From NCBI GenBank assembly GCA_021234155.1, contig JAJEKV010000022.1, positions 7,719,961 to 7,783,960 of the forward strand: a DNA stretch of 64,000 nt, read 5' to 3'. The stretch is from Isoetes taiwanensis (lineage: Eukaryota; Streptophyta; Lycopodiopsida; Isoetales; Isoetaceae). Under the pieces are notes generated by a model, which saw only the letters and a list, made by a program, of their open reading frames with translations, made no database searches and was not told the DNA's origin. The translations under genes were made by a program, and so were the position numbers. Positions 11,130 to 63,374 of this stretch are shown here, in pieces (position 1 is the first letter of the stretch; each line of letters begins with the position of its first letter).

Positions 11130-11988
11130 TGCACTGGTGAGTTGGAAGGAATTGGTTTCAATTTGAGAAGGTTCATTAAATTTTTTTTTTTTTTTACCTG
11201 CCTTAATGGTGGATGCATTCATGAAAAGAATGATTTGAAAAGATATGTATTAGTCCCCCAAGGATAGGCAGGAAATAAAAGTTGTAGTCATCTGTTTGTG
11301 TCTGTATCTGCAAAGATCTCATTGTAAGCTTGGTATGGATAGATCTGACTAAGTTGTACGTGAGCTGGTGGAAGGCCCTTCTTTTCGTCCCCAATTGTCA
11401 GGTTCTCAATGCTCAGAGTATATAAATTACCATAACAAGTGCAAGAGTATACTTTGTTGTTGAATCTCGAACATAAGTTCTGGATCCTACGCTCAACGAC
11501 GCCTCCTCAAAGATCTTCAAGAGGTTAATGGGCTGACCTTTTTAGGTTTTGCTTTTTCCTGCACTGGTGAGTTGGAAGGAATTGGTTTCAATTTGACAAG
11601 GTTCATTAAATTTTTTTTTTTTTTACCTGCCTTAATGGTGGATGCATTCATGAAAAGAATGATTTGAAAAGATATGTATTAGTCCCCCAAGGATAGGCAG
11701 GAAATAAAGGTTGTAGTCATCTGTTTGTGTCTGTATCTGCAAAGATCTCATTGTAAGCTTGGTATGGATAGATCTGACTAAGTTGTACGTGAGCTGGTGG
11801 AAGGCCCTTCTTTTCGTCCCCAATTGTCAGGTTCTCAATGCTCAGAGTATATAAATTACCATAACAAGTGCAAGAGTATACTTTGTTGTCGAATCTCGAA
11901 CATGAGTTCTGGATCCTACGCTCAACGACGCCTCCTCAAAGATCTTCAAGAGGTTAATGGGCTGACCTTTTTAGGTTTTGCTTTTTCC
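11130..11988. repeat. 430-bp near-identical tandem duplication of promoter and exon 1
   Basis: Copy 1 spans about 11,130-11,559 and copy 2 about 11,560-11,988. Both start TGCACTGGTGAGTTGGAAGG and end GGTTTTGCTTTTTCC. Only about five differences were noticed by eye (for example GAGAAGG/GACAAGG, poly-T length, TTGTTG/TTGTCG), so the event is young. Copy 2 holds the real start codon of the downstream gene; copy 1 has ATA at the same place. The downstream gene therefore has two copies of its proximal promoter and one usable initiation codon. Confidence 0.92.
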
Positions 11989-19015: not shown

Positions 19016-19074
19016 ACCATGATGATGAAAAACTTGTGTCAGGTCTGCACTTTTGCACTTTTGGATTTATGGAA

Positions 19075-20393
19075 TTCTTACGTTGTTGGATACTCAGAAG
19101 AATAAATGGGTTGCCATAGATGCCAGTAAGATAGCTATTGGAGGTGTCTTCATGGAGGAAGGTACGCATATGACTCCAAGAAGATGAATGAAGCTGAGCA
19201 GCGATACCCAACACATGACCAAGAGTTACTTGCTGTTATGGCTCTACGACTATGAAGACATTACCTCCTGGGGAGGAGATTCCAGCTAGATACAGATCAT
19301 CAAAGCCTCCAGTATATCTTCACCCAACCCCACCTTAATCTCCGTCAACGTAGATGGATGGAATTCCTGGAGGAATATGACTGAGGTTGCGTATACGCTA
19401 GACAAGCATAATGTTGTTGTTGATGCCCATTTTAGGCACCCTTTTATTACCTGCACATATTGCAATGCTATTTCCACCCTCACTAGTGAGTTTGGGAAGA
19501 CAATTGAACAAGCTCTCTCGATCCTAAATTTCATGAGGTTTGGCACATCTTATGCAAGGAAGCCAGAACTGATAAAGAACGAGAGGCTTTCTGCCATTAT
19601 AAAAAAGAGGGCAAGCTCCTTTATTACAAGAATAAATTACGTGTGCCAGAAACATCGGGCATTAGGAAGCTCATTCTCCACGGCACACATAATAGTCCAA
19701 TAGCGGGACATACTGGGTTTATGAAAACCTATTTTAAGATCAGATCCAACTGCTTTTGGCCAGTAAAAGAAGCATATTGTCCATTACATTATGCAGTGTC
19801 AGCTTTGCCAACAAACAAAGCAGAGCAGTTAAGAACTCCAGGAGAGCTAGAACCATTGGAAGTTCCCCATGCGTAATGGGAAGTTATAACCATGGATTTC
19901 ATAGTGGGTCTACCAAGAACTTTTCGAGGATTTCATGCATTGATGGTAGTGGTGGACAAGCTTTCTAAGATGGCCCACTTCTTGCCGTGTTGTATACCAT
20001 GGAGGCCTTGGATACCGTGTTACTGTTCTCCAAGGAAATCTCTTGGCTCCATGGTATGTCACATACCATTATCTCCGATCGTGATCCTAAGTTTGTTAAT
20101 GCTTTTTGGAAAGATTTCTTCGTCACTATTCAAACCAAGCTTGCCATGAGTACTGTATATCACCCTCAGACAGATGGAGTCCTCGAGAATGTCCCCATTT
20201 ATGATTAACTATGGATATCTTATTATCTTACTCCCGACATATGCCACAATCTTGTTTCCAAGGTGAAAGTCTCTCTACGATCATTTCATGTATCGTCTAA
20301 ATCACATGTTTGAATATATTAGCTTCCTTTCATTTTTAACTTTAACCACCTAACCATAATGCTGAGGACAGCATTTTTCTAAGGGGGGGAGAA
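19075..20393 (+). mobile_element. Ty3/gypsy pol relic: RNase H, integrase and polypurine tract
   Basis: Frameshifted translation gives RNase H (DTQKNKWVAIDASKIAIGGV at about 19,089), the linker VAYTLDKHNVVVDAHFRHP, the zinc-binding integrase N-terminus region and the integrase core ([20 protein letters not shown] at 19,892, then [20 protein letters not shown] and STVYHPQTDGV). Integrase inserts the cDNA into chromosomes. The D-D-E core is cut short after QTDGV. The fragment ends in the polypurine tract AAGGGGGGGAGAA at 20,381-20,393, which abuts an LTR. It belongs to the same family as the pol at 31.9-34.3 kb, matching it almost word for word in shared parts (PELIKNERL / PELIRNERL). Confidence 0.85.
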
Positions 20394-21886
20394 TGTGACG
20401 TTTTACGTATTTATACAGTATATTTATAAATATCATGACACATTACTATAGGTATTTTGGGACCATTGTGGGGCAAATTGATGAGGTTTAAGTTAGATAT
20501 GCTAAGGAATTAATTCATTAAACTATTTAATGACTAAATCTCTAGTTAATTAGTGGTGATTAGAATAAATTGGGCCATAGGGTAAAGCCACCTCAACCAA
20601 CCCGATTGGCCTAAGCCACTTACCCATTTGGGAGGTATTCAAGGGTCCCCCAACCCAATTCTGCCCAATTCGACCTAGGAGAGCTGGAGGAGGAGCAGCT
20701 TCTTGTTTATACCTACCCAGCTAACCAACAATGGAACACCTCAGAGAGAATGGATCAAGCCAAGATGCCGGTTAGTTTCTAGATATATTGATCTTCTACT
20801 AACCCTTGTATGAGTAGATGGGTGCTTAATCTCTATTTTATGCTTTGATCAAGTTATGGATGAATGGATCTATGTATAGTAGATATTTTGTTTCTGTTCC
20901 TCCTGTGTTGTATGGATCAAGGGGGGTAGAGGCCTAAAGGCCATCTAGTAGTAGATATATTCATAGCTAGAACTCGTTAGATTTCATTAAATGTGGCCTG
21001 TGCACAAGACCCCCCTGGCTGTGGAGGCTATGATGTGATTGAGCACCAGATAACGGGTACCCTGGTGAAGCGAGAGTGGAGCCTTGCTGTGCACGGCTAC
21101 TGGGAATCCTACAGTTAGCTAGACTTATAGTTGGTCATCTCATGTGGGCCGGGTATGGATCTGACACCTCGGGTCGTAGGGCAGGTTTGAAAAGGGGAGG
21201 CCTCAGGTCGATAGGTGCGGTGATCCGACCTATGGATTTTGGGGGGTTTAAGTCGGGTACGGATACGGGGTCACTGAGGTGGCATGTATCCTCTAGCACA
21301 CCCAAGGATCCATTGTGCCTAAGGAGGGGATGCCTCTCTAACCTGCCTCATCAGACCGGGGAGATGTAACACGGAGTAGTCTCATAGGGTGATTCCATGA
21401 GGTTGTGTTTCCTATCTGTAAAGTGTGCACAGGAGGGGCGGATGGAGTGGACTATCCTAGCCATTGTTCTATGCCAGCCAACGCCATTTTCATGATTCCG
21501 CCTATTATTATCTAGAGGCCCTGACCGTCAATTGATCCCTTTGGAGTGTGAGCCCAGGATAGAACCCTCATTTATGATGCATTTCATTTGTTATATTGGT
21601 ATTATATTGAAGTTGCCTACAGATGATGGATGAGCCACTCTTTGAGGTGGTATATTATTATGTGTATTGTTGCTAGGTGCTAATTTGTATGTACGCTTCC
21701 GCTATATAGGATTCCCCATGGAAGGCGTGGGATGAATGACACCTCTATGTCCTTCACCCGGACACTTGCCCATCACAAGTGGTCCGAGTCAGACAGAGGG
21801 CCTTTCCATGGTGATGGAATCGCCATTGGGGGGGATTTCCCGTATTTTTATGATGGGAACATCGTATAGGTTCGGAAAGCATCACA
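20394..21886 (+). mobile_element. Complete LTR (a), ~1.49 kb, of the H3-bearing gypsy family
   Basis: The LTR starts TGTGACG right after a polypurine tract and ends ATCACA one base before a primer binding site, giving 5-bp TGTGA/TCACA termini. It thus serves as the 3' LTR of the pol relic on its left and the 5' LTR of the ORF-A/H3 copy on its right. Related partial or full LTRs are at 24,432-24,663, 29,342-30,825, and 34,338-34,903 joined to 38,968-39,056. The frames inside it have no coding meaning. Confidence 0.85.
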
Positions 21887-21887
21887 A

Positions 21888-21910
21888 TGGTATCAGAACC
21901 ATGATCTTGG
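21888..21910 (+). promoter_or_regulatory. Primer binding site, initiator-Met tRNA type
   Basis: TGGTATCAGAACCATG follows the LTR with a one-base gap. The first nine bases fit the complement of the 3' end of plant initiator methionine tRNA, the usual primer for this class. The second copy at 24,665 reads TGGTATCAGAGC, closer to consensus. Confidence 0.8.
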
Positions 21911-22210
21911 TAGATCTGGATTATAGCCCTCGCTATGTTCTAACCCGTTAGCTTGATTAGGGTAGAAATTATCTGACGTAGTATAATTGCCCCAGAGACA
22001 TAGGTATCGAGCCCATTAACTTATGTATGGGAGGATTAAAAGATTTAGGACTTAGATTGTAGAGCGTTAGAGTGGGCTTTTGTTGAGTTTTTTGGAAGAA
22101 TAAGGCCGCTTGTTCCCGAAGGCCATAACTTTTTTATAGAAAGATCGGATGGAGGAGATTTTTGCACTTTTGCGAAGAAGAATTTTTGCACCTTGCTTGA
22201 CTAGGACCCC

Positions 22211-22280
22211 CTGTGACGACCATACGGATATTCCTATCATACAAACATTATACTCCTATGTACAAAAGATGGTCGTCACA
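22211..22280. repeat. 70-bp inverted repeat TGTGACGACCAT / ATGGTCGTCACA
   Basis: Perfect 12-bp arms at about 22,212-22,223 and 22,268-22,279 enclose about 44 bp. TGTGACG is also how the LTR of this family starts. It lies in the leader between the primer binding site and ORF-A, just before a tRNA-like stretch. Confidence 0.7.
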
Positions 22281-22304
22281 TGGATGCAAAAAAGTAGTTG
22301 CACA

Positions 22305-22378
22305 AGACAGGGTTTGAACTCGCAACCTTCCAATTGCGAGTCGCACACCCTTGCCAAGTGCGCTACCAATATTTGTTG
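22305..22378 (-). other. tRNA-like stretch, possible SINE head
   Basis: The minus strand reads TTGGTAGCGCACTTGGCAAG and, further on, GGTTGCGAGTTCAAACCCTG, which resemble Pol III A and B boxes at tRNA spacing. The anticodon stem does not pair well, so this is not an intact tRNA gene. It is probably a tRNA-derived SINE inserted in the retroelement leader. Confidence 0.45.
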
Positions 22379-22421
22379 AAGATATTCCTTCACGTCCTCC
22401 TCATATGTGGGACTATCTCTA

Positions 22422-22444
22422 GAAGGTTCTAGAATGTTCTAGAA
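22422..22444 (+). promoter_or_regulatory. Five-unit heat-shock element
   Basis: The sequence GAAGGTTCTAGAATGTTCTA followed by GAA contains five perfectly alternating GAA/TTC units with two-base spacing, the consensus bound by heat-shock factor trimers. It lies about 72 bp upstream of a TATA box and 620 bp upstream of the ORF-A start codon. Function is inferred from the motif only. Confidence 0.7.
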
Positions 22445-22513
22445 CCTAAATGCATGCGCGACACTTGGCGCGATCTCATCCATTGGAGTTGCGCGATCCT
22501 GACCGTTGGTCTA

Positions 22514-22523
22514 GATATATAAG
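22514..22523 (+). promoter_or_regulatory. TATA box downstream of heat-shock element
   Basis: GATATATAAG at 22,514-22,523 is a canonical plant TATA box. A pyrimidine-rich leader follows. Together with the heat-shock element it forms a plausible internal promoter for the ORF-A/H3 unit, separate from the LTR promoter. The corresponding part of the second copy (24.7-25.3 kb) lacks both motifs. Confidence 0.6.
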
Positions 22524-23064
22524 GAGGCACCTCCTTCTTGTCAAACCATTCTGGTTCAACGCTAGTCTTGAGCCTTCTAGGCATCTGTCTCGTATTCCTG
22601 CTTGCCTTCGGGCTATTGTATTCTTGATTCCTGTTCATATATCAGATTCTTTGCCGATCTTGGCGTATTTCTTCCGTATTTCTTGCGTATTTTCCTTGTT
22701 TTCGAGTAGGTTCATGACAACCCCTAAAAGCCCCATCATCAGGTGCACCATCAAAAAGATTTTTAGGGTTTTTCCTAATGCAGTGTTGAAGGGGAAATCG
22801 ATGCCTCAAATCAAATTTTAAAGCCGTAAAACCCACTCATTGCTGCACAAGGGCACGTATTTCCATCGTATAAATTTAAAAAAAAAAAGATATGTTCCAA
22901 ATTTAGTAGGAGTCCCTTTCTTTTTGAATTACTTTTTCTTTGCCCTCTTTGTGTCTTCTCTTGCCTCCTCCAGTCGCCATAGCCGCCGGAATCGAACTAC
23001 CTTCGCCATAGCCAGACTCCTGCCTTTGTACTACAATGCCTACTTTCTCCTCCTCCGTAAAGCC

Positions 23065-23859
23065 ATGGCTCGGACCATGCAAGCTCAGTCCTATGAGATG
23101 CTTGATATCACCCAGATTTTCACGGTACTCGAAAGCAACCTTGCCAAAGATCCCCGAAAAGTCGAGCTCCTCCTCGACCAATTAGTCCAGCGTTTCTTAG
23201 TGGGAGGACGCATACCTTATCCCATCTTCCATTTGACGGAGAGGTTCTTGCTTAAATTAAATGTTGCTGGTGAAGCATACACCCTCGTGGAGCAGCCAGA
23301 TCAAGTCTTAACCCTCCTCAAGTACTGTCCCCCGGAGTCGGAGGCCATTACTGATGAGAAAGCAGCGAGGGTGGAAGCACAAAGAGTTATGGAATTGGCC
23401 ATAGCCATAGATGCACAAGAATTAGCTAATGGGGATCCAGCTGATAGGGGTGGCCGATACATTTATTTGGGAAATGGGAAGGTTATTATTGAAGGATGCC
23501 CCTTCACTTATTATTATGATGAGATATGGGATAGTTTCTTTGAGTACATCACTTCTGATCTTCAGCAGACCATAGAGTCGGAAATGGTGGCCATGCCTGA
23601 TAGATACATCACTGAGATATGCACGGAGGCCTGCCTAGCCCGAGAGAGACATGCCCAGAGGGAAGCAGAGCGAGCAATTGAGAATCAAATGAAGCAGAAC
23701 GCCGACAAACTTGAGCCTCGTACGATTAAACAAGTACGGCGCACAAGCTGGGTGGCAATTATAAGGAACGTTTCAAAGCTGTGGGCGTGGTCGAAAAAGC
23801 GACATCTGTCAGCGGACGCCAAGAACGGGTCGACACTGCTGGCCACCGTACGGCTGTAA
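23065..23859 (+). CDS. ORF-A, retroelement-borne protein upstream of histone H3 domain (copy 1)
   Basis: The start chosen is GCCATGGCT at 23,065, giving [19 protein letters not shown]; the frame is open further upstream but that part aligns with untranslated leader in copy 2. The 264-residue product has a conserved N-terminal domain also present in copy 2 ([46 protein letters not shown]), a middle with [18 protein letters not shown], and a charged helix [15 protein letters not shown]. It ends at TAA 23,857; a shift of one base would lead straight into the H3 domain that follows, so the ancestral protein was probably an ORF-A-H3 fusion. Both copies begin MART, as histone H3 does. It occupies the gag position after an LTR and primer binding site. 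No zinc knuckle is seen and the family is not recognised. Confidence 0.72.
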
Positions 23860-24187
23860 GACTCTTGCTAAGCCGTCAGCCCCCAAGAAGAAATCCCATA
23901 AGTGGAGGCCTGGCACGGTAGCCTTGCAGGAGATTCGAAAGTATCAAAAATCCACTGAGCTCCTCTTACGCAAGTTACTGTTCCAACAATTAGCTCGAAA
24001 GATTGTTCAGGAATTTAAGGCCAATCTTAGATTCCAGACTCATGCCATCCTCACCATGCAGGAGGCTAGGGAAGGCTATCTGGTAGCTCTTTTCGGTGAT
24101 GCCAACCTTTGTGCCATACAAGCTAAGCGCGTCGCCATTATGCCAAAAGATTTACACTTGGCCCAACGGATTCGATGGGACCACTGA
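23852..24187 (+). CDS. Histone H3 core domain carried by the retroelement (copy 1)
   Basis: From about 23,855 the frame reads [14 protein letters not shown], then [20 protein letters not shown], a [20 protein letters not shown] segment, [20 protein letters not shown] and [20 protein letters not shown] before TGA. This is the full alpha-N, alpha-1, loop 1, alpha-2 and alpha-3 core of H3 with normal loop lengths, the conserved Cys (NLCAI) and the IMPKD motif. The canonical tail (K4, K9, K14, K27) is missing or replaced. The domain is open throughout but one base out of frame with ORF-A. H3 normally pairs with H4 to form the nucleosome core. The divergence points to long residence in the element rather than a fresh host copy. 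Confidence 0.88.
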
Positions 24188-24189
24188 TA

Positions 24190-24431
24190 GTATCAGCATT
24201 ATATTTTTGTTTAACATCTTCATCCTATTGTACATCTGTTTTTTCTATTAATGTGAATCTTCATGTTTTGTGTCTATTGTATGAACGTCATATACATTCA
24301 TTTGTTGTCCAGAGAAAAGGGAATGGAGAGGGAGTATGAAATGAATATAAATAAATAAATAAATATTTTTTTTTATAAAAAAAACAAAAAAAAATTAATA
24401 ATATATATAATACTTTTTTTAAAGTCTATTC
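24190..24431. other. AT-rich 3' flank of the H3 copy
   Basis: The stretch resembles a 3' untranslated region followed by (AAAT)n and poly-A/T runs. The analogous AT-rich tail follows the second H3 copy at 27,100-27,265. Confidence 0.5.
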
Positions 24432-24676
24432 TTGCCAGATGCAAACATGTATGTACGCTTCCACTAAATAGGATTGCCATAGAAGGCGTGGGACAAATGA
24501 CACCTCTGTATCCTTCACCCGGACACTTGGCCATCACAAGGGGTCCGAGTCAGATGGAGGGCCTTTCTATGGTGATGGAGTCTCCCGAGAGGGGGGGGAA
24601 GGGGGGAGGGGATTTCCCATATTTATACGATGGGAGCATCGTATAGGTTCGGGGAGCGTCGCAATGGTATCAGAGC
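24432..24676 (+). mobile_element. Truncated LTR (b), 3' end only, with primer binding site
   Basis: The last ~230 bp of the LTR family is present (ATGTATGTACGCTTCCACTA, CCTTCACCCGGACACTTGGC, GGTTCGGGGAGCG), ending GTCGCA. After one base comes TGGTATCAGAGC at 24,665, a consensus initiator-Met primer binding site. This opens the second ORF-A copy. Confidence 0.8.
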
Positions 24677-25351
24677 ATGATTTTGGTGGACCAGATCATT
24701 GCACTGGCCATGCCCTAACTCGATAGAACATTAATTAGTTGGGGACTCTAACATAGAAAATTTCCCTAGAACCCTGTAAGTAGCATTATTGATGCCCAAA
24801 AAGTGTTGGTTGAGAGGGTAATATGAAGATGTGAAGGTAAGACTATGTGAGTTTTGGCAACAAGTGGTCTCTCTTTTCCAAAGTCCATAACTCTCTCTAG
24901 AGATCTTGGATTGAAGAAATTTTTGTTCCATCGTATCTGGAACCTCCAAATTAGTCTCGGACACCCTTTGGCCAACCTCCTGGCCCTCTAAATTGGCCCT
25001 AAATCCCAAATAGGTGTACTTGGAAAAAATAGGCTTTATTTCTTTATTTTAAGTGGCCAAAATCTGATTCACGCCGGTTTGACCGTACGCGGGTTGACCA
25101 AAAACTTAAAATAAATAAATAAATAAATAAATAATACATTAAAAGTAACGTGAGATTTAAGTTTTATGGTTTTTGGGGGTTTCATTTTGAACCTTATCCT
25201 CTCCCAGCACTGTCCTTGTCCGCCATAGCCACCGGAGTAGGATACCTTCGCCATAATCGTCAGAGCACTCCCTTCCGCCATACCTGACTTGTGCCTACTC
25301 CTTTGGGCCTTCGCACTCGCCCATGGCCAGAACCTAAGCTTCTGCATGAAC
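24677..25351. other. Leader of the second retroelement copy
   Basis: The leader aligns loosely with that of copy 1 (CCATAACTCTCTCTAGAGATCTTGGATTGAAGAAATTTTTG matches a similar segment near 22,120-22,170). An (AAAT)n run lies at 25,108-25,133. The heat-shock element and TATA box of copy 1 are absent. No gene. Confidence 0.5.
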
Positions 25352-25971
25352 ATGGCTCGCACTGAGGGAACGAAGAGTTACTCTTCGTGCAATGTCTTCC
25401 AACTCTTTGCTGAACTCGGCTGTCATCTCGGCGATACACCAGACGGGCCTACTAAGATCGAGCTCCTCCTAGAGCAGTTAGTTCAACAGTTTGTGGAGGG
25501 AGATCAGATTCTTTATCCTGTTTTTCACCTCATGAAGCAGTTCCTGCTAAAACTAAATGCTGAAGGGGAAACATACACTCTCGTGGAGCGGGAAGACCGA
25601 GTCCTAACCCTTGTGCACTACTACCCTCTGGACTTGCCCCAAGATGCCGCCGCTGAAGATGCTCGCCGTGAAGCTGCAAGAATCATGGCTATGGCACAAG
25701 AGGAAGATGCACGACAGATTGTGAGCAGAGATCCAGTTGTTCGAGGGCAGGAATACGTTTATTTAGGAAGAGAGCCATAACATGAGGGTGCAATTTAACA
25801 TGAGGGTGCAATTTCACCTTGCCCATATATTACTATGATGAGGAGGCCCAAATTTTTATTTGGGAGGATATACCAGCACCTCTTACACAAGCGAATCTGC
25901 ATCCGGTTGAGCTCGATATGGCGGCCCGACCTGAGCGATATCTTGTAGAGATTCGGAGACGGGCCGAGCAT
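25352..25971 (+). pseudogene. ORF-A copy 2, N-terminal and middle part (stops, then interrupted)
   Basis: The frame from ATG at 25,352 reads MARTEGTKSYSSCNVFQLF and carries the same domain as copy 1: IELLLEQLVQQFVEGDQILY, LMKQFLLKLNAEGETYTLVE, DRVLTLVHYYP. It stops at 25,778. Past a short direct repeat (CATGAGGGTGCAATTT twice) the homology resumes (TLPIYYYDEE, ELDMAARPERYLVEIRRRAE) until a 550-bp element interrupts it at 25,972. The two copies differ at about half of residues by eye while keeping the same pattern, so the family is old. Nonfunctional here. Confidence 0.75.
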
Positions 25972-26521
25972 TAGAGGAAATTTGAGATCTCATTTCATCC
26001 CCATAAGAATCTCCAATGGAATGGCTTACCCTCTATTAACTGCAATTAATGCAGCACCAACAACTTCATTGCTGTTGTTTTCCCCCCATTTGATCCACTT
26101 GTCAAAATGTTGCGGCGTTTGTTGCATTAGATGCGAAATGAAAAGATCTTTCCAATGATATATGGTTATGATGTATTTCAATATGGTCATATGTGTTAAC
26201 CTTAAAAAAAATATGATTTTTTGCTTATTTCTTATATATTTATATCGTAAAAGATGTATGAATGGTTATCACTAGATAGATCTTGTGAAGACGAATACAT
26301 TGCTACAAAAAGTCTTTGAATCGGAGTTCTGGATCAAAAGTTATAATGAAAAAATGATACTACAGAAGTTAGTTGCAGCTGCATTAATTACAGGCTGCCA
26401 CATAATACTGGAATGAGATATACTGGAGCTCTTCTCTTATTGGACAGTTTAAAAAGCTGACATGACATTTTAAGCATCCCTTAATGGGACAAAATGTGAT
26501 CTCATTTTTCCTCTAATGATA
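25972..26521. mobile_element. ~550-bp TIR element inserted in ORF-A copy 2
   Basis: Termini are inverted repeats: CATTAGAGGAAATTTGAGATC at the left and, read on the minus strand, CATTAGAGGAAAAATGAGATC at the right; similarity extends about 40 bp. The flanks (GGGCCGAG and ATACGCC) show no target duplication. ORF-A homology is broken exactly at the two ends, so the insertion boundaries are secure. Internal sequence has no coding capacity, so the element would be non-autonomous. Confidence 0.82.
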
Positions 26522-27093
26522 CGCCTGCTACGAGAGCAACACGCCAAGAGAGAAGCGGCACGGCTAGAGGAAGAGCAAGCAAGAAAGATTGCCGAAGAGC
26601 CCGCCAACCGCACCATACAACGGAAGCGGAAGACCGCCAATCCTACTCGCTTGGGCGCTTAGTATAAAACATGGCTCCAAGCGATAGGCGGGATAGCAAA
26701 GGAGAAGGGGGACACTCGTCGAGAAACTCTGGTCCAGCGGGCCCGACAACCGGGGGCAAGACCCTTCCTCTTGTACCACCACCTCGTTAGAGGAAGCCGC
26801 ACAGGTATAGACCGGGAACAGTTGCCTTGCGAGAGACCCAGAAGTACCAAAAGTCGACGGAGCTCTTACTGTGGAAGCTACCCTTCCAACGCCTAGTCCG
26901 AGAAATTGCTTAACAATTGAAGACTAACCTGCGGTTTCAAACCCACGCCATTCTTGTATTACATGAGGTTGTAGAGAATTACCTCGTCACTCTCTTCGCC
27001 GACGCCAACCTCTGTGCCATACACGCTAAATGCGTGACTATTATGCCAAAGGATTTGGCCCTGGCACGTCGGATTTGCGGGGATCGTAACTAG
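26522..27093 (+). pseudogene. ORF-A C-terminal part and histone H3 domain (copy 2)
   Basis: After the insertion the frame gives LLREQHAKREAARLEEEQAR and RTIQRKRKTANP, the end of ORF-A. A basic, Gly/Pro-rich tail follows (PTTGGKTLPLVPPPR) and then, from 26,791, the H3 core: [72 protein letters not shown] and LALARRI. A TAG precedes RKPHRY and a TAA replaces the Gln after REIA, so the copy is dead. Some parts are closer to canonical H3 than copy 1 ([17 protein letters not shown]), which helps establish the ancestral state. Confidence 0.85.
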
Positions 27094-27411
27094 ATCCCAC
27101 ATTTTGTATTATATTTATATTTTTGTACCAAAGTTTCTTATATCAGTATAATGCATGTATATTATCTGCTATGTGTATCGTTGCCTTGTCTTCTTAATTC
27201 AAAGCACACACTAAGCCCGAGTTAAAAAATAAAAATAAAAAAAATAATAATAATAAAATAAATAGTATTGTTGGGAGGAAAAAAAGCCCCAAAAAAAGAA
27301 ATATTCCCTGACAACCAGTTCCTTCTTTTAAAAGGCCCCTTCTTCTTTTTAGGATTTCATTGCTTCCTTGGCCCTCTATACTTTTGCTTCTCCCTCTTCT
27401 TTCGAGCTGTT

Positions 27412-28470
27412 ATGGATTACGCTAAGCGCCACCAGTGGCACCAGGATGAAGAGCATTGGGACTCCCAGGTCCCGTTCGAGCTTATCCACCCCTATTTGTT
27501 GCAAGAGGTGGACCTCATTACGAATATGAAGGCTCATCCTGATTATGTGGATTTCTTGGAGTTTTATACCCAAGAAATGATTCCGCAATGTGAGCCTTAC
27601 GGAGACCCTCCCCAACTGTATCTTAACAGAGATATCCTCATGCAGATGTTGGGCGACGAACGACATGCAGAAGCCTTCCTCCGTGGCATCCGACGATGGG
27701 CAAAGCACGCCCCCATTCGTCATTTTGGCCGCCAGCAGACCTATTTTGAGGTCAGTTTCGCCCTATCTATTCTTATGGATCAATATGTCGAGGCTGGAGT
27801 TACCCCATCCAAAAAAGGCAAGATGCCTATTCCGTCTGATCCCATTGAAGAGGAGTGGATTAGCCATACCGACTTCGCTCATTGGAAGCAATTAGCCGCA
27901 GAGATGCCTGTGCACCGAATCCAGGGCTATAAACTCGCCGGGCTAGACGGAATCCCGACGATTATTCTCAACAATCAAGAGTATCTTTTGCTTGAGGATA
28001 TTCTGTGGGCGTACCGTGTCATCGCCGTTACCCGTCACGTGAAGAAGGAGGACATCCTGTATGAGCTAGCTGAGTATTGTCAAGGTGATTTCCTTGATTA
28101 CTCTACCCCCGAGTATCCACCCCAGATCCAGCAGTTGCTCAAGTTTCACCCAGATGACCTAGAGCCTGTTGAGACATTATTAGGCTTGCGGCATCTTATG
28201 CTACAAGATCCTCCTTTTCCACCACCTGAGGATGCCTTTACTGTCATGGGGCCACACGTCCGCAATATCAATGGCGTAGTTGTGCCTATGGAGGAAGATG
28301 ACGAAGGTGAGGATCTCTATGATAACAATGAACATCTTACGGAGGAGAAGGAGGAACTCAAAGAGGAGGAGGTTACGGTGAACCTTGAGGCTGAGGTGGC
28401 AACCTCCAGTATTCTAGAGGTAGCAGCCTTGAAGAATCATCTGACTAGATTCCTCCTCTCAGCTTTTTGA
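27412..28470 (+). CDS. ORF-B, unknown retroelement-borne protein with acidic region (copy 1)
   Basis: The start chosen is ATG at 27,412 (MDYAKRHQWHQDEEHWDS); the open frame extends upstream only through non-conserved leader. The 352-residue product is conserved in part with the copy at 30.8 kb: DFAHWKQLAAEMPVHRIQGY, QEYLLLEDILWAYRVIAVTR, DILYELAEYCQGDFLDY and LRHLML. A strongly acidic stretch (MEEDDEGEDLYDNNE, then EEKEELKEEE) lies at about 300-335. Past the stop at 28,470 homology with copy 2 continues in shifted frames to about 28,800 (WMSMKMLVAAPLA, ALTISPGVTLL), so the original protein was longer. It follows ORF-A/H3 by about 320 bp. No known domain, zinc knuckle or membrane segment was recognised. 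Confidence 0.7.
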   Translation: MDYAKRHQWHQDEEHWDSQVPFELIHPYLLQEVDLITNMKAHPDYVDFLEFYTQEMIPQCEPYGDPPQLYLNRDILMQMLGDERHAEAFLRGIRRWAKHAPIRHFGRQQTYFEVSFALSILMDQYVEAGVTPSKKGKMPIPSDPIEEEWISHTDFAHWKQLAAEMPVHRIQGYKLAGLDGIPTIILNNQEYLLLEDILWAYRVIAVTRHVKKEDILYELAEYCQGDFLDYSTPEYPPQIQQLLKFHPDDLEPVETLLGLRHLMLQDPPFPPPEDAFTVMGPHVRNINGVVVPMEEDDEGEDLYDNNEHLTEEKEELKEEEVTVNLEAEVATSSILEVAALKNHLTRFLLSAF

Positions 28471-29076
28471 CAAGGCCAAGTTATACTCTTCCCCAGGGCG
28501 CTCGCTCCCGAGGCCGAAGCATCCTTCTGGGCACTAAAGGATTTGTCCGCCATGGTCGGGCACAAGAAGCTCCAGCACAATACTCAGGCTTCTGCGCTGG
28601 TGAACGGGATTAGTTACTTGCTGCTCTAGGCCAAGATGTTGCCGTCTGGATGAGCATGAAGATGCTCGTGGCCGCACCCTTGGCCATCGCCTTCTCTCCG
28701 GAGGCGGCATCAGCAGCTGCCCTTACTATTAGCCCCGGCGTCACTTTGCTCCACCAGCGGCAACCACCAAAGCCTCCTACGTAGATGGACCATGATGCAG
28801 GGCCTAGTTCATGACTATAGTTCTTTTGGATTATAGTGTATGGCCATTGGCCACTACCATGTGTATTATTGATATTTCCATGCCATTTTGTTTAATACAA
28901 ATTTCGCTCTTTTTCTATTGATTGTCTTTCCTTTGATAAACTCTTGTGCAAAGCGTATAAGTCATTAATTGCGCATCTTCTACGGGGCCTGTTACAGGGA
29001 CAAATGTGCCACTTCACCCCACTAAAGGGTGGGAAATTGTCACGCTCCTTCGAGACAAAGCCGTCCATAACTTACG
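28471..29076 (+). other. Decayed C-terminal part of ORF-B and AT-rich spacer
   Basis: 28,471-28,800 retains out-of-frame homology to the tail of ORF-B copy 2 (VAAPLAIAF / IAAPLATAF; LTISPG in both). 28,800-29,000 is AT-rich spacer. Near 28,990-29,075 a frame reading TNVPLHPTKGWEIVTLLRDK may be the start of the next ORF, one frameshift away. Confidence 0.5.
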
Positions 29077-29334
29077 ATGCACGATGCGAGAAGTTGGTCC
29101 TATTGGGATTTCACCAATGAGGAAGAATTCTTCGATGCGGATGATCACATTTGGGAACTTTATTGGGCGATGAACAACTTATTCAATCTCTTAATCATAA
29201 AATCGACCATGGAATATCAAGATACCATCATCCAGGCTTGGCACAAATATAATTTAGTGCGCACAGTAAAGGATAGTATCCTCCATACGTTACTGAATCT
29301 ATTTACAGTGCCAGTAGACTATACTCCTGTATAA
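29077..29334 (+). CDS. ORF-C, unknown 85-aa frame before LTR (c)
   Basis: ATG at 29,077 opens an 85-residue frame (MHDARSWSYWDFTNEEEFFD ... VKDSILHTLLNLFTVPVDYT) ending seven bases before LTR (c). The upstream frame TNVPLHPTKGWEIVTLLRDK ... LRCTMREVG suggests a longer protein broken by a frameshift. The composition (acidic, aromatic-rich, hydrophobic C-terminus) looks protein-like, but I recognise no family and see no second copy in the window. Confidence 0.35.
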   Translation: MHDARSWSYWDFTNEEEFFDADDHIWELYWAMNNLFNLLIIKSTMEYQDTIIQAWHKYNLVRTVKDSILHTLLNLFTVPVDYTPV

Positions 29335-29341
29335 GTATCAA

Positions 29342-30825
29342 TGTTTGTCCATTTGGGCATTATATGCTATGCATATAACTACCGTGACACGTCACCAGGT
29401 ATGTTGGTCTATAAAGGGGGATTATGGGTTACCATTAAAAGTGATTTATGTTAGCTATACTAAATAATTATAGATTAGTTAATCTAATTAACCTAATTAA
29501 GCTATTTAATAATATTAATGAGCTAATAAGGGGGGCCACCTGGCCCAAATCGATTGGGCCAGAGGAAACCTGTTATTCCCAAGAGGACAAGCTGGGCCTT
29601 CATCCCCAATCCTACCCCAAATCGAGTTGGGGAAGATTGGAGAAGGAGGGAGCTACTTGAGGACAGCAACTAACCTTCAATTATGGATGTTCTTTGTGAT
29701 AACAGTCCAGCCAAGAAACAGGTCCGTCTTTAGGTAGTTTGCGTTCTAATCTAACCCTTGTATGAAAAGCCCATGAAAAGGTGAATGATTAGACTCTCTT
29801 TTATGCTCTTATTGAGATTCTGATGGATGATTTGAATGTGATTGTTCTTTCCTTCTGTTCCTCCTATGTGTGTATGGGAATTAAAGGGGGGTAGAGACCT
29901 AAACTCTACTTAGGAATAGAGATGTTCCTAGCTAGAACCCTTTAAAACCCATTACAAGAGCCCTCCTGGTTGTTGATGGTATGGTGTGGTTGAGCACCAG
30001 ACAAGGATCATGGTGGTGAAGTGGGGGTGGGACCGTGCCTAGCGTGACACCGTGGCTAGTTCTATAGTCGGTCATTATGTATGGGCCGGGATGGATTTGA
30101 CACCTCCTGGGTCGCAGGATACGTGCCTATAGGGACGTCCTGGGTCGATAGGTGTGTCGGGGTGGCCTATGGATTTTGGGGGGTTAAAGTCGGGTACGGA
30201 TGCATGGTTGCCTGACAGAACCACGATCCTCTAGCCACCAATGGAAGCATCATGCTCTGGAGAGGATTCCCCCCTTACCTGCCTCATCGGACTGGGGAGA
30301 TGTAATTCGGAGTAGTCTCATAGAGTGATTCCATGAGATTGCGCTCCGGAAGGCTACAACCATGTCATAGCGTGATTCAGCCTATCTGCAAAGTGGACAC
30401 AGGAGGGGCAGATGGAATGGACTACCCTAGCCATTGTTCTATGCCAACCAATGCCATTGTTATGATTCCGTCTGTTGTTATCCGAAGGCCTTGACTGTCA
30501 GTTGACCCCCTTGAGTCTGAGCCCTTGACTTTCTATGTTGTATTGGCACTCTGTTATTATTCGTGTGATGATGGATGGGCCACCCTTCATGGCGGCATAT
30601 TATTTATTTGTATTGTTGCCAGATGCTAACCTGTATGTATGCTTCTGAGATTGCCATAGAAGGCGTGGGACGAATGACACCTCCGTGTCCTTCACCCGGA
30701 CACTTGGCCATCACAAGGGGTCCGAGTCAGACGGAGAGCCTTTCTAACTTGATGGAGTCGCCATGGGGGGAGGATTTCCCGTATTTATACGATGGGAGCA
30801 TCGTACAGGTTCGGGGAGTGACACA
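29342..30825 (+). mobile_element. LTR (c), ~1.48 kb, full length
   Basis: The LTR starts TGTTTGTCC and ends GTGACACA. It aligns in register with LTR (a) from the first base (CCGTGACACG at offset 40 against CATGACACAT) to the last. No polypurine tract lies on its left and no primer binding site on its right; instead ORF-B homology begins directly at 30,826. The 5-bp flanks (ATCAA / GAAAG) are not a target duplication. It is therefore a recombined LTR and not a clean solo insertion. Confidence 0.8.
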
Positions 30826-31800
30826 GAAAGGGAAGATGCAGATACCCTCACTAGAAGAGGAGGATGAGCGTGTTGACCAGGATGACTTTGTCCGATGGAA
30901 ACAATTGGCTGAAGAGATTCCAATACCCAGGGGGCAAGGATCCAAACTTACTGGTCTGGATACCATACTGGTAGTCTATGTCAACGGGCAAGAGTATCTT
31001 CTCCTCGATGACATTATATGGACCTACCGTGTCATTACTCGTCTTAAGCACAAACGAAAGCTTGAGGTCCTTTACGAACTCGCCGAGTATTGCATGGGAG
31101 ACTTCCTTGATTTTTTCCCAGTTGAGTTCCCGACACAGGTTCAGCAGCTATTAAGCTTCCAACTGGAGGAAATCGAGCCCATCGATACCTTTCTAAGACT
31201 TCGGCACCTGATGTTGTAGGGCGCGCCATCGGAACCGCCTCCAGAAGCTTTCACAGCTATGGGACCTCATGTTCCTAACATAAATGATGTTGAGGTCACA
31301 ATGGAGCCCGATAGGAGGGGGAGGACTTATTAGAAAATAAGGATCATGCTCGGGAAGAAAAACAGGAAGCCAAGGAAAAAGGAGATGTCAGCAGACATCG
31401 ATAAATAAGTTTACACCGCCATTTCAGAGGAAGCGAAGGCTCTAGGAAATCATATCCTCCGCTTCTTCCTATTCGCATTTAAGGAAACGCAGATCCTTTT
31501 TGTTGCGTGAGACCTTGCTCCTTGGTCACATTGTGCCTTATCCACATTGGCAGGTCATAAGAAGATACTATTGTGCTGGTGTGCAGGACCTTGTCATTGC
31601 TGCCTAGAGCAGGATATAGTGGCCTAGATGAGCATGAAGTTGCTCATCGCAGCACCGTTGGCCACTGCCTTCCAGCCCGAGTTTGCATCTGCAGCTGTGC
31701 TCACCATCAGCCCAGGCGCCACCTTACTTCGGCACCGACGACCACTTGATCCTCCATCTCCCATGGAGGAAGCAGAACCTAGCTCCTGATCATTTTAATT
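30826..31800 (+). pseudogene. ORF-B copy 2 (N-terminus missing)
   Basis: Homology to ORF-B copy 1 starts at KGKMQIPS immediately after LTR (c) and continues as DFVRWKQLAEEIPIPRGQGS, QEYLLLDDIIWTYRVITRLK, LEVLYELAEYCMGDFLDFFP and DTFLRLRHLML, with a stop at 31,217. Past the stop it continues in broken frames (PPPEAFTAMGPHVPNIND, then LIAAPLATAF ... LTISPGATLL). The acidic region has decayed. Reverse transcriptase sequence of the same family begins only about 120 bp downstream, which places ORF-B directly before pol. Confidence 0.75.
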
Positions 31801-31912
31801 ACTATTAGGACTTGCCTTCGGGCATTATATATTGTGAAGCCGACGTTAGCATTTTCTAGTATTATATAATATAAATTTTAATCATTTATGCCTTCTTGAT
31901 TATTGACTTATG

Positions 31913-32680
31913 GATGATTATGGTGTACTTCAACCCTGTATCAAACCTACCATCAAGGCTCCATACCGCATGAGTACTCCCAAACTAACCGAGCTCAAGA
32001 AGCAGTTACAGGAATTCACCTGGGCTTCATTCGCCCAAGCATCTCACATTTCGGGGCACCTATTTTGTTTGTTACGAAAACGAATGGCACATTGCGCATG
32101 TGCATTGATTACTGGCAATTGAATAAGCACACTATTAAGAATCGGTATGCTTTACATGGCCGATGATTTTATGGACCAATTGCAAGAAGCCAGATACTTC
32201 TCCAAGATTGATCTTAGATTTGAATATCATCAGATAAGGATCAAGGAAGAAGATATCCATAAGTCAATTTTTAGGACCCGCTATGGGCATTATGAATTTA
32301 CAGTAATGCCCCTGCTACATTTACGCGATTGATGAACAATGTCTTTCGTGACTATCTCGATGAGTTTGTCATCATTTTTTTTATGTCATCCTCATGTACA
32401 GTAAAACTTTGAAAGACCATGAACGCCATCTTCGCTTGGACTTACAGAAATTGAGACGCCATTAATTATTTGCTAAATTCTCCAAATGCAAGTTTGCCAC
32501 TATACAAGTGGAGTACCTAGGATATATCGTCTCCGTTGACGGTATTTCCACAGATCCAACAACGATTGAGACAGTTAAAGACTGGCCCGCTCCTATCAAC
32601 GTTTCAAAGGTCAGAAGCTTTTTGGGATTGGCAGGATATTATAGAAAATTTGTTAAGGACTTTGCCAAGATAGCTGCACC
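31913..32680 (+). mobile_element. Ty3/gypsy reverse transcriptase relic (chromovirus-like)
   Basis: Frameshifted translation gives [20 protein letters not shown], a decayed [10 protein letters not shown]...CALIT stretch, [40 protein letters not shown], the region of the YxDD box (DEFVIIFF) and VEYLGYIVSVDGISTDPTTI with KVRSFLGLAGYYRKFVKDFA. The order and wording match chromovirus-type RT. The protease and the first part of RT are missing. It is cut at AAP by a hAT-like element and resumes at 33,341. Confidence 0.88.
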
Positions 32681-33340
32681 CATGGAATAAAATAACGGCT
32701 AAGGTTAGCCAAATGGCTATTTTGTAGCAGTTTTGGCAAGAAAAACGGCTAAAGTAAATGGAAAAAATGCCCAAAAAGAAGAAAATTTTAGCCCAATTTT
32801 TTTGCCGCCCAAGTGAGTTTTTAGGTTGAATAGCCAAACCTTTACCTCCAGACATATCCATCAGGACATCGATTAGCTAAACCTTGGATAGAGTGGGCTT
32901 GGAAAAATGGATAGATTAGCCCGAAATTCAACATCAATGTATGTACTAACTTCAAGAAATTTCAAATAGGGTTAATATTTCTCTTTTTCTTTTCACTTTC
33001 TTTCTTGTTCCAAGTACAAAGTTGACGCATTAGAGGAAAAGGAACAATGTAGTCCTTTTTTTTTTAGGTTTTTGAACATGTTCATGTATATCTTGATTTA
33101 TGTATTTACAATAAATTCAATGTCCTTGCCAAAATGCTTGGATTTTTTTAAATTACTATGGCGTGATGGCTAGTATTTGCCTTCCCATTTTGTGAAAGTT
33201 TAGCCAAAAGCAAGAAAAAGTGATGGAGAAAAACTATTTAGTTTAGCCAAGTGTTAGAAACTTCTAACCCTAATTTGAAGGTAGTTTAGCTAAACCTATT
33301 TTGGCTACACTAAAATATAGGAGTAGTAATTTATTCCATG
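32681..33340. mobile_element. hAT-like non-autonomous element, 660 bp, 8-bp target duplication
   Basis: The element is flanked by GCTGCACC at 32,673-32,680 and again at 33,341-33,348, a perfect 8-bp target duplication as made by hAT transposases. Terminal inverted repeats are CATGGAATAAAATA and, on the minus strand, CATGGAATAAATTA. Subterminal TTAGCCAAA / TTTGGCTA words are repeated, a typical hAT feature. It has no transposase ORF. Removing it with one duplicate restores the pol reading (AKIAAPLIDL), which proves the boundaries. Confidence 0.93.
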
Positions 33341-34337
33341 GCTGCACCCCTTATTGATCTCACCAGAAACAAAAAATTTAAAGATTGGGTGACACATTGG
33401 AAGGAGAAGGTCCAATCTGGATTCCATCAATTGAAGGAAGCATTGACAACTGCTCCAATTCTTACCTTGTTGGATCCTCAGGAGGATAAATGGATTGCCA
33501 CAGATGCCAGTAAGATAGCTACTGGAGGTGTCTTCATGCAAGGAAGGGTTATTGCATATGACTCCAAGAAGATGAATGAAGCTGGGCAGCAATACCGAAT
33601 ACATGACTAAGAGTTGCTTAACATTGTACGAGCTCTACGAATATGGAGACATTACCTCCTGGGGAGGAGATTCCAGTTAGATACAAATCATCAAAGCGTC
33701 CACCCAACTCCACCTTAATCTTCTTCAACGTAGATGGATGAAATTCCTAGAGGAATATGACTTTGAGATTGTGTGTAAGCCAGACAAGCATAATGTTGCT
33801 ATTGATGCCCTTTCTAGGTACCCTCTTATTACTTGCACACATTGCAATGCTATTTTCACCCTCACCAATGAGTTTGGGATGACAATTGTACAAGCTCTCA
33901 CACTGATCTTGAATTTCATGAGGTTTGGCACAAATTATGCAAGGAAGCCAGAACTGATAAGGAACGAGAGGCTTTTCGCCATTACAAAAAAGAGGGCAAG
34001 CTCTTTTATTACAAGAATAATATTTGTGCTAGAAACATCGGGTGTTAGAAAGCTCATTCTCCATGACACACATAATAGTCCAATAGCCGGACATCCTGGA
34101 TTTATGAAAACCTATTTTAAGATCAGGTCCAGCTACTTTTGGCCAATAATGAAGAAGCATATTGCCCGTTATATTATGCAGTGTCAACTTTGCCAACAAA
34201 CAAAAGCAGAGCACGAGAGCTAGAACCATTAGAAGTTCCCCACGCCTATTGCCATGAGTACTGCATATCACCCTTAGACAGACGGCCAGACGGAGTGTAC
34301 TAATAGAATTATTGAAGATATGTTGCGTAAATATGTC
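33341..34337 (+). mobile_element. Ty3/gypsy RNase H and integrase relic (continuation)
   Basis: Right of the hAT-like element the pol continues: PLIDLTRNKKFKDWVTHWKE, QLKEALTTAPILTLLDPQED, KWIATDASKIATGGVFMQGR, YDSKKMNEAGQQY, EYDFEIVCKPDKHNVAIDAL, then the integrase N-terminus ETSGVRKLILHDTHNSPIAG, GFMKTYFKIRSSYFWPIMKK and CQLCQQTKAE. Most of the integrase core is deleted; a short piece ending EDMLRKYV joins LTR (d) at about 34,338. Same family as the pol at 19.1-20.4 kb. Confidence 0.85.
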
Positions 34338-34903
34338 TTCCTGGGTCGCAGGGCATGTCTGGAAAGGGGCGGCCTCGGCTTGATAGGTGCGGTGATCCGG
34401 CCCATGGATTTTGGGGGGTTTAAGTCGGGTACAGATGCGGGGGTCACTGAGGTGGCATATATCCTCTAGCACACCCAGGGACCCATTGTGCCCGAGGAGG
34501 GGATGCCTCCCTAACCTGCCTCGTCGGACTGGGGAGATGTAACTTGGAGTAGTCTCATGGGGTAATTCCATGAACCTATCTGCAAAGTGTGCACAGGAGG
34601 GGCGGATGGAGTGGACTACTCTAGCCATTGTTCTATGCAGCCAACGCCATTGTCATGATTCCGTCAGTTGTTGTTTGGAGGTCATGACCATCAGTTGACT
34701 CCTTGGAGTCTGAGCCCAGGGTAGAACCCTCATTTATGATGCATTTCATATGTTATATTGGTATTATATTGAAGTTGCCTATAGATGATGGATGAGCCAC
34801 ACTTTGAGGTGGTATATTATTATGTGTATTGTTGCTAGCTGCTAACTTGTATGTATGCTTCCTCTATATAGGATTTCGCATGGAAGGCATGGGACGAATG
34901 ACA
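34338..34903 (+). mobile_element. LTR (d), left part
   Basis: The sequence matches LTR (a) from its middle onward (CTGGGTCGCAGGGCATG, GATTTTGGGGGGTTTAAGTC, GTTGCTAGCTGCTAACTTGT), so its first ~780 bp are deleted. It is split at GAATGACA by the 4-kb TIR element and resumes at 38,968. Confidence 0.8.
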
Positions 34904-35337
34904 CATTAGGGCGGATTTGGGGTCTGAAAATGGCCTCCTATCAGCCATTCCACGTCATATTTCCGCTCCTTTTTTCCCATGCCACCTAGGATACCAAAAT
35001 CTCATCATTACAGATTTACTTGGAATATTCTCCCGGAATAAAGGGGATCGCGCATTCATGGCGCCATATGTATTTAATTCTGTTGGTTGTCAGACAGACT
35101 GATGCAACACGTGCCGCTTCTAAAAAGCCACTTGCATTATAGCATACCGGCAACTCATGGCGGTGTCTCTTGGCTTGTCAGATACCAAGCGTGTGCATCA
35201 CCGATTCTTGCGCTATTTTCATTTAGAGGCCATAGCCATACAAGCTTCCCGCTTTCCACATTTCAAAATTTGAATGTGTAGGTTGAAGCTTTGTATCAGA
35301 CTTTCATTTCGAGGCGCTGCGGCTGCGCCTTATGGGT

Positions 35338-63024: not shown

Positions 63025-63374
63025 AAGAGCCGCCGCGGTACCGGTCCTCGATCGAAAGTGTCATGTCACCCCGTGGGGATCAAAGATACTCGTGGTAAGA
63101 TGAGAGGGGGAGACCGCTGGAGGAGCTTGAACATGATAAATATTTTGTGCTTTGCTTAGTGAGTAGTCGAGATGGAAGGTTCAGCATTCTCGACAGAGAT
63201 CAATTGGCCAGTTTCCAGATCCATGGTGGCATTGAGATGGCCATCGGTGATAACAAGTTGGTCCGTGGCCCAGTAATGAATACTCTTGGCCTGTCGGAGA
63301 AAAGGTCTTCCAACCAACATTTCATAGTCACCCGAATCTTCTCCAGCTTTCCAAACTCCAAAGGGAATTTGAGA
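63025..63374 (-). other. Linker between protease and reverse transcriptase
   Basis: Frameshifted pol sequence with readable pieces (ITDGHLNATMDLETGQLISV) typical of the protease-RT linker. No separate gene. Confidence 0.5.

What the first reader, a model, noticed from the sequence alone, without database searches (positions are those of the whole stretch)
23065..27093. Gypsy retrotransposon family carrying a histone H3 core domain
Two diverged copies of ORF-A are each followed by a recognisable H3 core, and each copy sits behind an LTR end and an initiator-Met primer binding site. The H3 alpha-N to alpha-3 core is kept with normal loop lengths, while the canonical modifiable tail is gone. Two independent copies with the same order argue that the H3 domain is part of the element, not a chance insertion. 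I know of no described LTR element with this architecture.
Basis: partly seen in the sequence, partly recalled or inferred. Interest (0 to 1): 0.93.

Follow-up and report, generated by a model that had tools for sequence, protein, structure and literature searches.

The report
Retrotransposon lineage carrying histone H3
Two decayed, anciently separated copies of a plant jumping gene each carry a domain taken from a host-type H3.3 histone and kept by selection, which suggests the element once made its own altered histone, perhaps to resist silencing or grip chromatin.

Summary
Two copies of an ORF (ORF-A) followed by a histone H3 core lie at 23065-24187 and 25352-27093, each about 680 bp (a later insert left out) behind an LTR end and an initiator-Met-type primer binding site, with a shared second ORF, Ty3/Gypsy pol pieces and related LTRs around them. 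The H3 cores are unmistakable (Pfam E ~1e-34) and of plant H3.3 type (H87/L90). Synonymous sites are near saturation (pS 0.69-0.80), yet H3 has pN/pS 0.25, keeps 65 of 95 residues between copies (neutral mean 40, 0 of 5000 simulations reach 65) and shares 7 derived residues. This points to one capture of an H3.3 coding sequence, then long selection inside the element. I found no relative of ORF-A in a 5.8-billion-protein set and no such element in the paper listings shown. The whole genome could not be searched. Proposed role (inferred): an element-encoded H3.3-type protein loaded into host chromatin to oppose silencing. New variant of a known kind.

The parts
20755..21886 (+). LTR_A (about 1.1 kb; left edge approximate), ends in CA just before the PBS-like site
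   Evidence: 75.8% over 1060 aligned sites to LTR_C, 89.6% over 565 to LTR_D; repeats
21888..21899 (+). primer binding site-like TGGTATCAGAAC, copy 1
   Evidence: the initiator-Met motif is recalled
22216..22719 (+). solo LTR-like insert of another family in the copy-1 leader (TGTGACGACC...ATGACA, flanked by ACCCC)
   Evidence: read by eye; without it the leader is 676 bp, against 688 bp in copy 2
23065..23859 (+). ORF-A copy 1 (frame 1), starts MARTMQ; leaves the reading shared with copy 2 near 23740
23765..24187 (+). H3 copy 1 reading frame (frame 2); histone core from about 23897, open to its stop
   Evidence: PF00125 E 3.1e-34; PDB H3.3 E 2.4e-42
24424..24663 (+). LTR_B, 3' end only (5' truncated)
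   Evidence: 88.7% to LTR_C over 213 sites, 84.6% to LTR_A over 221
24665..24676 (+). primer binding site TGGTATCAGAGC, copy 2
25352..26663 (+). ORF-A copy 2 in pieces (25352-25780, 25804-25974, 26525-26663), starts MARTEGT; broken by stops and by a terminal-inverted-repeat insert at about 25973-26520
   Evidence: tblastn with ORF-A copy 1; codon comparison; insert ends
26668..27093 (+). H3 copy 2 reading frame (frame 1), core from about 26800; two in-frame stops before its end
   Evidence: PF00125 E 6.5e-35 with X at the internal stop
27412..28470 (+). second element ORF (MDYAK...), in the usual gag position, no known domain
   Evidence: 50% identical to 30815-31489, pN/pS 0.37; no Pfam match; no homolog found
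29706..30820 (+). LTR_C, closes the copy-2 element; joined to the middle of the next element's MDYAK ORF, apparently by a deletion
30815..31489 (+). partial MDYAK ORF of element 3
   Evidence: tblastn E 2.16e-63
31918..34303 (+). broken Ty3/Gypsy pol of element 3 (RT, RNase H, integrase zinc-binding pieces)
   Evidence: RVT_1 E 3.2e-4, below its cut-off, and RT_RNaseH_2 E 9.4e-15 (pieces 31918-32163 and 32466-32687 gave no family); Integrase_H2C2 E 1.9e-19
34339..34904 (+). LTR_D (partial)
   Evidence: 89.6% to LTR_A over 565 sites
19073..20205 (+). 3' part of pol of the element upstream of LTR_A
   Evidence: 19073-19878 is 85% identical to 33457-34251; Integrase_H2C2 E 2.3e-7 for 19508-19873; pieces 19877-20146 and 19969-20205 look integrase-like by eye but gave no Pfam family

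Best explanation
What it is: remnants of a plant Ty3/Gypsy-type LTR retrotransposon lineage that captured one processed H3.3 coding sequence. Order: LTR, PBS, leader, ORF-A, H3 core, MDYAK ORF, pol, LTR. The MART start of ORF-A suggests that the large ORF-A segment took the place of most of the H3 tail. How it most likely works (inferred): the element makes an ORF-A-H3 protein, by frameshift or splicing, or an H3 made alone. Its H3.3-type core pairs with host H4, is loaded into chromatin by the host H3.3 route, and puts a nucleosome without the usual modifiable tail at transcribed element copies. This would favour the H3.3-rich, unmethylated state and oppose silencing. Shown: the anatomy, the age, the selection, the H3.3 type. 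Inferred: translation, nucleosome entry, anti-silencing. I give about 0.85 that H3 belongs to the element and 0.35 to this role.
For: Anatomy. Selection between copies: H3 pN/pS 0.252 (bootstrap 0.17-0.34), codon-position differences 28/20/64 over 108 codons; ORF-A N-terminal part 0.45 (0.34-0.59); MDYAK 0.37 (0.31-0.45); pS 0.69-0.88 over all parts. Neutral simulation for H3: 65 of 95 residues kept against a mean of 40.1, 0 of 5000 runs. H3.3 type: H87 and L90 in both copies, 7 shared derived residues; 7 of the 14 sites changed in both went to the same residue, 1.27 expected. Of the 24 sites listed, 17 match plant H3.3 in both copies (among them K56, K64, R72, K79, R83, C110, K115, K122, D123, L126), V89 is I in both, and the other 6 are canonical in one copy. 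Role: in Arabidopsis ddm1, ectopic H3.3 deposition was held responsible for loss of DNA methylation, and loss of HIRA raises methylation at transposons again (PMC10529913, passages). Viral single H3 histones are argued to enter host chromatin because of similar chaperone recognition sites (PMC9145170, passages); here that site reads HAIL in both copies (plant H3.3 HAVL).
Against: No intact copy and no expression data. ORF-A and H3 are in different frames in both copies, and the junction shows no clear coding constraint in any frame, so a fusion protein is not shown. Sister support is 85/85, below the tree tool's own bar. pS is so near saturation that a dN/dS cannot be computed for H3. LTRs are far more alike (76-90%) than synonymous sites, which needs LTR exchange or constraint. 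Nothing shows which chromatin the protein would enter. [quoted passage not shown]
Confidence: 0.35

Rival explanations
1. Chromatin tether for integration: the H3 core docks the element's particle or integration complex on nucleosomes or histone chaperones, as a self-made counterpart of the chromodomain of chromoviruses, and ORF-A links it to the particle.
For: Core and H3.3-type chaperone site kept; chromodomains of Gypsy elements interact with histone marks and target integration to heterochromatin (introduction of PMC9289625, passage). The ORF lies just before the gag position.
Against: H3 lies far from integrase; nothing links ORF-A to Gag; MDYAK and ORF-A show no relation (hhalign probability 0.80%).
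Confidence: 0.25
2. Non-chromatin use: H3 serves as a basic nucleic-acid-binding or dimerising module of a structural protein (packaging of RNA or cDNA).
For: The domain sits upstream of a gag-position ORF; many basic residues are kept.
Against: Residues that matter for H3.3 identity (H87, L90) and for H3-H3 contacts (C110, D123, L126; roles recalled) are also kept in both copies.
Confidence: 0.1
3. Passenger: an H3.3 transcript was transduced by chance and copied along without use.
For: Plant LTR elements do carry transduced host gene pieces (PMC7264820, passages). Both copies here are broken.
Against: pN/pS 0.25 with near-saturated synonymous sites and third-position excess; a passenger would have decayed.
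Confidence: 0.07
4. Host gene: ORF-A-H3 is an odd host H3-variant gene that happens to lie beside LTRs and was duplicated locally.
For: Only two copies were seen, about 2.3 kb apart; the leaders are barely alignable (51.7% against 39-47% for ten shuffles).
Against: LTR end, PBS and leader length recur in both copies (676 and 688 bp); no relative of ORF-A found in a protein set that includes NCBI plant proteins (the search needs shared 5-residue words); copy 2 lies between related LTR stretches.
Confidence: 0.1
5. Two independent H3.3 captures by related elements.
For: Support for the branch uniting the copies is only 85/85.
Against: Homologous ORF-A ahead of both H3s, shared MART start, shared derived residues.
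Confidence: 0.03

Closest known systems
Plant Ty3/Gypsy elements with extra ORFs (additional ORFs; Ogre; Phalaenopsis AlkB-type Gypsy)
   Same: Gypsy pol, extra ORF in the internal region, domain taken from a host-type protein
   Different: The captured domain is a core histone. A screen of 121 angiosperm genomes found 15 uncommon domains in Gypsy elements (PMC9289625, abstract and passages); the word histone occurs twice in its main text, neither time for a captured histone. I did not see the full list of 15 or the supplement
Chromoviruses (chromodomain Gypsy elements)
   Same: Gypsy element with a chromatin-directed domain
   Different: A chromodomain reads histone marks and sits at the end of integrase (position recalled); here the element carries a histone, upstream of the gag position and pol. 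No chromodomain was found in the pieces scanned, but the pol ends are broken
Single viral histones (bracovirus H4, xenomavirus H3, phycodnavirus- and mimivirus-like H3)
   Same: Captured host-type histone with conserved fold, altered or extended tail, probably loaded into host chromatin (PMC9145170, passages)
   Different: Those are DNA viruses; the review's main text has 0 occurrences of 'retrotranspos' and 'retrovir'
Plant histone H3.3
   Same: Gap-free core, H87 and L90; 66 of 93 (copy 1) and 70 of 94 (copy 2) residues identical
   Different: 27 and 24 changed core positions (the latter counting the stop), tail replaced or interrupted; the K4, K9 and K14 stretch is not recognisable

Membership tests
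LTR retrotransposon | LTR followed by PBS | tested here: met
   LTR_A and LTR_B end in CA, one base, then PBS-like or PBS
LTR retrotransposon | Two full LTRs with target-site duplication around one intact element | tested here: not met
   No ORF-A/H3 copy has two full LTRs; LTR_B lacks its 5' part. Read as decay; filing rests on the other features
Ty3/Gypsy superfamily | RT, RNase H, integrase in that order | tested here: met
   Element 3: RVT_1 (below cut-off), RT_RNaseH_2, Integrase_H2C2 in that order; 4 of the 6 pol pieces scanned gave no family
Ty3/Gypsy superfamily | ORF-A/H3, MDYAK and pol in one unbroken element | tested here: inconclusive
   Linked pairwise (LTR-ORF-A-H3-MDYAK-LTR; MDYAK-pol-LTR; pol-LTR-PBS-ORF-A-H3), never all in one copy
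Chromovirus | Chromodomain at the end of integrase | tested here: inconclusive
   None in the pieces scanned; integrase C-termini are broken
Histone H3 | alpha-N plus histone fold with canonical loops | tested here: met
   Sequence match over the whole core without gaps; no structure model of the H3 part was made
Histone H3.3, plant type | H87 and L90 (and Y41) | tested here: met
   H87 and L90 in both; Y41 in copy 2, W in copy 1
CENH3 | Longer loop 1; groups with CENH3/CENP-A | tested here: not met
Histone H3 | Forms nucleosomes with H4 | not testable with these tools
   needs a bench test

The most novel reading that the evidence does not exclude
A retrotransposon lineage makes its own histone: an H3.3 whose tail, after the first residues ART, was opened by a large element-specific domain, so that element chromatin is built with a nucleosome that silencing enzymes cannot mark.
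Probability: 0.3. Interest if true: 0.95.

Novelty: new variant of a known kind. Interest (0 to 1): 0.8.

Why it matters
Transposons are silenced through histone marks and H3 variant exchange. An LTR element that kept its own H3.3-type histone under selection would be a direct counter-move in that conflict, and would give a natural H3 with a rebuilt tail for testing which tail and core features silencing needs. It would also extend captured histones from DNA viruses to retroelements.

Tried and rejected
Chance similarity: rejected (Pfam E ~1e-34 twice). CENH3 origin: rejected. Recent host pseudogene: rejected, because both copies are far from H3.3 yet share derived residues and an upstream ORF. 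A programmed -1 frameshift: the -1 relation is conserved without gaps, but by eye I saw no convincing slippery site (no scan was run) and no frame is clearly constrained across the junction, so it is left open. Structure models of MDYAK (mean pLDDT 34.8) and ORF-A (45.0), each from two sequences, were too poor to search with. MDYAK against ORF-A: no relation. Weak Pfam matches below cut-off were set aside: NSRP1_N for ORF-A (E 0.0043), AUDH_beta_propeller for the partial MDYAK (E 0.048), CENP-S and CENP-T_C for H3 copy 2. ORF-A in viral contigs: 64 pattern matches, none confirmed. In one search my query for ORF-A copy 2 was translated in a wrong frame; the copy-2 matches used come from the ORF-A copy 1 query. 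Host identity: protein kinase and ubiquitin-conjugating domains and H87/L90 fit a land plant; not narrowed further. Rfam: 0 matches.

Papers: nine searches were answered (one search was on plant H3.3 itself). Seen were titles and abstract starts: 20 of 472, 20 of 62, 20 of 516, 3 of 3, 13 of 13, 5 of 5, 10 of 11, 3 of 3 and 0 of 0. None of the entries shown describes an H3-carrying LTR element; exact phrases such as 'retrotransposon-encoded histone' gave 0 papers. 'Histone' occurs 0 times in PMC7264820, PMC6338049 and PMC6431247. No paper was read whole. Most subscription journals, preprints and Repbase are not covered.
Full report
OBSERVATION. The window (64 kb, plant-like) holds two copies of an ORF followed by a histone H3 core. 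Copy 1: ORF-A at 23065-23859, H3 frame 23765-24187. Copy 2: ORF-A in pieces at 25352-26663, H3 frame 26668-27093. Pfam gives PF00125 at E 3.1e-34 and 6.5e-35. In the PDB the best match of copy 1 is an H3.3, E 2.4e-42, over residues 35-139 of the 140 given. tblastn of ORF-A copy 1 and H3 copy 1 against the window at E <= 1 finds only these two sets.

ANATOMY. Each copy lies behind an LTR end (CA), one base, and a primer binding site: exact TGGTATCAGAGC at 24665, one base off at 21888. With the solo LTR-like insert (22216-22719) left out, the leader of copy 1 is 676 bp; that of copy 2 is 688 bp. Downstream of copy 2 comes a second ORF (MDYAK, 27412-28470), then LTR_C (29706-30820), 88.7% identical over 213 sites to the LTR_B end in front of copy 2. 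A partial MDYAK copy recurs at 30815-31489, followed by broken Gypsy pol: RVT_1 (E 3.2e-4, below its cut-off), RT_RNaseH_2 (E 9.4e-15), Integrase_H2C2 (E 1.9e-19). Then comes LTR_D, 89.6% identical to LTR_A over 565 sites. Another pol piece, 85% identical to that one over 820 aligned sites, lies before LTR_A. Of the six pol pieces scanned, two matched a family and four did not; both integrase zinc-binding pieces matched. So ORF-A-H3, MDYAK, pol and the LTRs are linked pairwise, but no copy holds all of them. Between LTR_C and the partial MDYAK the PBS, ORF-A, H3 and the MDYAK start are missing together, which reads as one deletion.

AGE AND SELECTION. Between copies: H3 pS 0.80, pN 0.20, ratio 0.252 (bootstrap 0.17-0.34); ORF-A N-terminal part 0.45 (0.34-0.59), its two other pieces 0.40 (0.25-0.59) and 0.48 (0.31-0.76); MDYAK 0.37 (0.31-0.45). 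For H3 and MDYAK pS is past the limit of the correction, so only the uncorrected ratio is given. In the gap-free H3 core, 93 of 285 bases differ, 56 of them at third positions; 65 of 95 residues are kept; a neutral placement of the same 93 changes keeps 40.1 on average, at most 51, in 5000 runs. The two cores together hold one stop; the simulation gives 3.4 on average in the changed copy alone. ORF-A evolves faster (dN 0.40, N-terminal part) than H3 (0.23). Synonymous changes could in principle have built up in host H3.3 genes before two separate captures; the next point speaks against that.

ONE CAPTURE, FROM H3.3. Both copies have H87 and L90, as in a Physcomitrium H3.3; the H3.1-type plant row (label mine) has S87 and A90. 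Copy 2 has Y41, copy 1 W41. Copy 1 is identical to H3.3 at 66 of 93 residues, copy 2 at 70 of 94. Fourteen sites are changed in both copies, 7 of them to the same residue (I62L, D81N, S86T, V89I, T107A, I124L, E133D); independent change would give about 1.27 under a crude BLOSUM model. In a nine-row tree the copies are sisters (85/85, not strong) and fall with H3, away from the CENH3 and CENP-A rows (96/94). No H3 gene of this host was available. The core carries no intron.

NEW DETAILS. (1) ORF-A begins MARTMQ in copy 1 and MARTEGT in copy 2; histone H3 begins MARTKQT. By crude window composition ART after M has a chance of about 2e-4, noticed after the fact. Copy 1 also keeps SAPKKKSH before the core, compared with SAPTTGGVKKPH in H3.3. 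I read this as a large domain set into the H3 tail; it is an inference. (2) From about 23742 to the end of H3 the two copies align without gaps, and in both the H3 frame is -1 relative to the ORF-A extension. Codon-position counts across the junction favour no frame clearly. A frameshift, splicing or a separate start are all possible; copy 2 has an ATG in the H3 frame at the point where copy 1 has ACG.

RELATIVES. ORF-A: 1021 candidates, none at E <= 1e-3. MDYAK: 2869 candidates, none. That search finds only relatives of 0.55-1.75 times the length that share exact 5-residue words, so distant kin can be missed. With the H3 part of a fusion-length query, 564 of 612 candidates matched; the 120 listed are 61-71% identical to it. 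Ten of them were fetched: tandem, extended or misjoined ordinary H3 models, all without ORF-A by eye; of the other 110 only the table row was seen. Viral contigs: none confirmed. The genome itself could not be searched.

MECHANISM. The sites kept in both copies include the alpha-2 chaperone site but for one conservative change (HAIL; plant H3.3 HAVL), and K56, K64, R72, K79, R83, C110, K115, K122, D123 and L126; R49, R63, R69, H113, R116 and T118 are each lost in one copy. The ancestral core thus looks fit for H4 pairing and H3.3-type loading (inferred; roles of single residues recalled). In Arabidopsis ddm1, ectopic H3.3 was held responsible for loss of methylation, and hira raises methylation at transposons again (PMC10529913, passages). 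A self-made H3.3-type protein without the standard tail is therefore a plausible anti-silencing device. Against a simple form of this, the same paper finds that atrx mutants lose methylation too and takes this to show that remodelling itself matters rather than specific variants (passages). A chromatin tether is the main rival, with the chromodomain as precedent (PMC9289625, passage). Viral single histones show that captured histones can act in host chromatin (PMC9145170, passages).

AGAINST AND OPEN. Both copies are broken, only two exist here, the fusion is unproven, and tree support is moderate. LTRs are 76-90% alike while synonymous sites are near saturation; LTR exchange between lineages or gene conversion would explain it but was not tested. 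The leader is barely alignable (51.7% against 39-47% for ten shuffles), which fits an old split.

VERDICT. It is a new variant of a known kind (Gypsy element with a captured domain), of high interest because the domain is a core histone kept by selection.

Noticed in passing
57228-63060 (-): A second, oppositely oriented Gypsy-like element: a 727-aa ORF without a family above cut-off, coiled-coil-like by eye, upstream of pol pieces (rve_3 E 7.3e-4, below cut-off).
   Followed up: partly
25973-26520: A ~550-bp insert with terminal inverted repeats (CATTAGAGGAAA...) splits ORF-A of copy 2; MITE-like, no clear target duplication seen.
   Followed up: partly
20755-34904: LTRs and pol of neighbouring elements are 76-90% alike while their 5' genes are near synonymous saturation: LTR exchange, gene conversion or unusual LTR constraint.
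   Followed up: partly
52058-53740: Another retroelement piece with a zinc-knuckle-like gag end and protease-like stretch, different from the others (recognised by eye).
   Followed up: no
11130-11988: A 430-bp tandem duplication, 98.8% identical.
   Followed up: no
41837-43662 (-) and 12302-13548 (+): Host-type genes: a protein kinase (E 1.2e-37 and 2.3e-16 for its two pieces), and a ubiquitin-conjugating domain (E 2.1e-12) followed by a weak F-box-like match below cut-off.
   Followed up: partly
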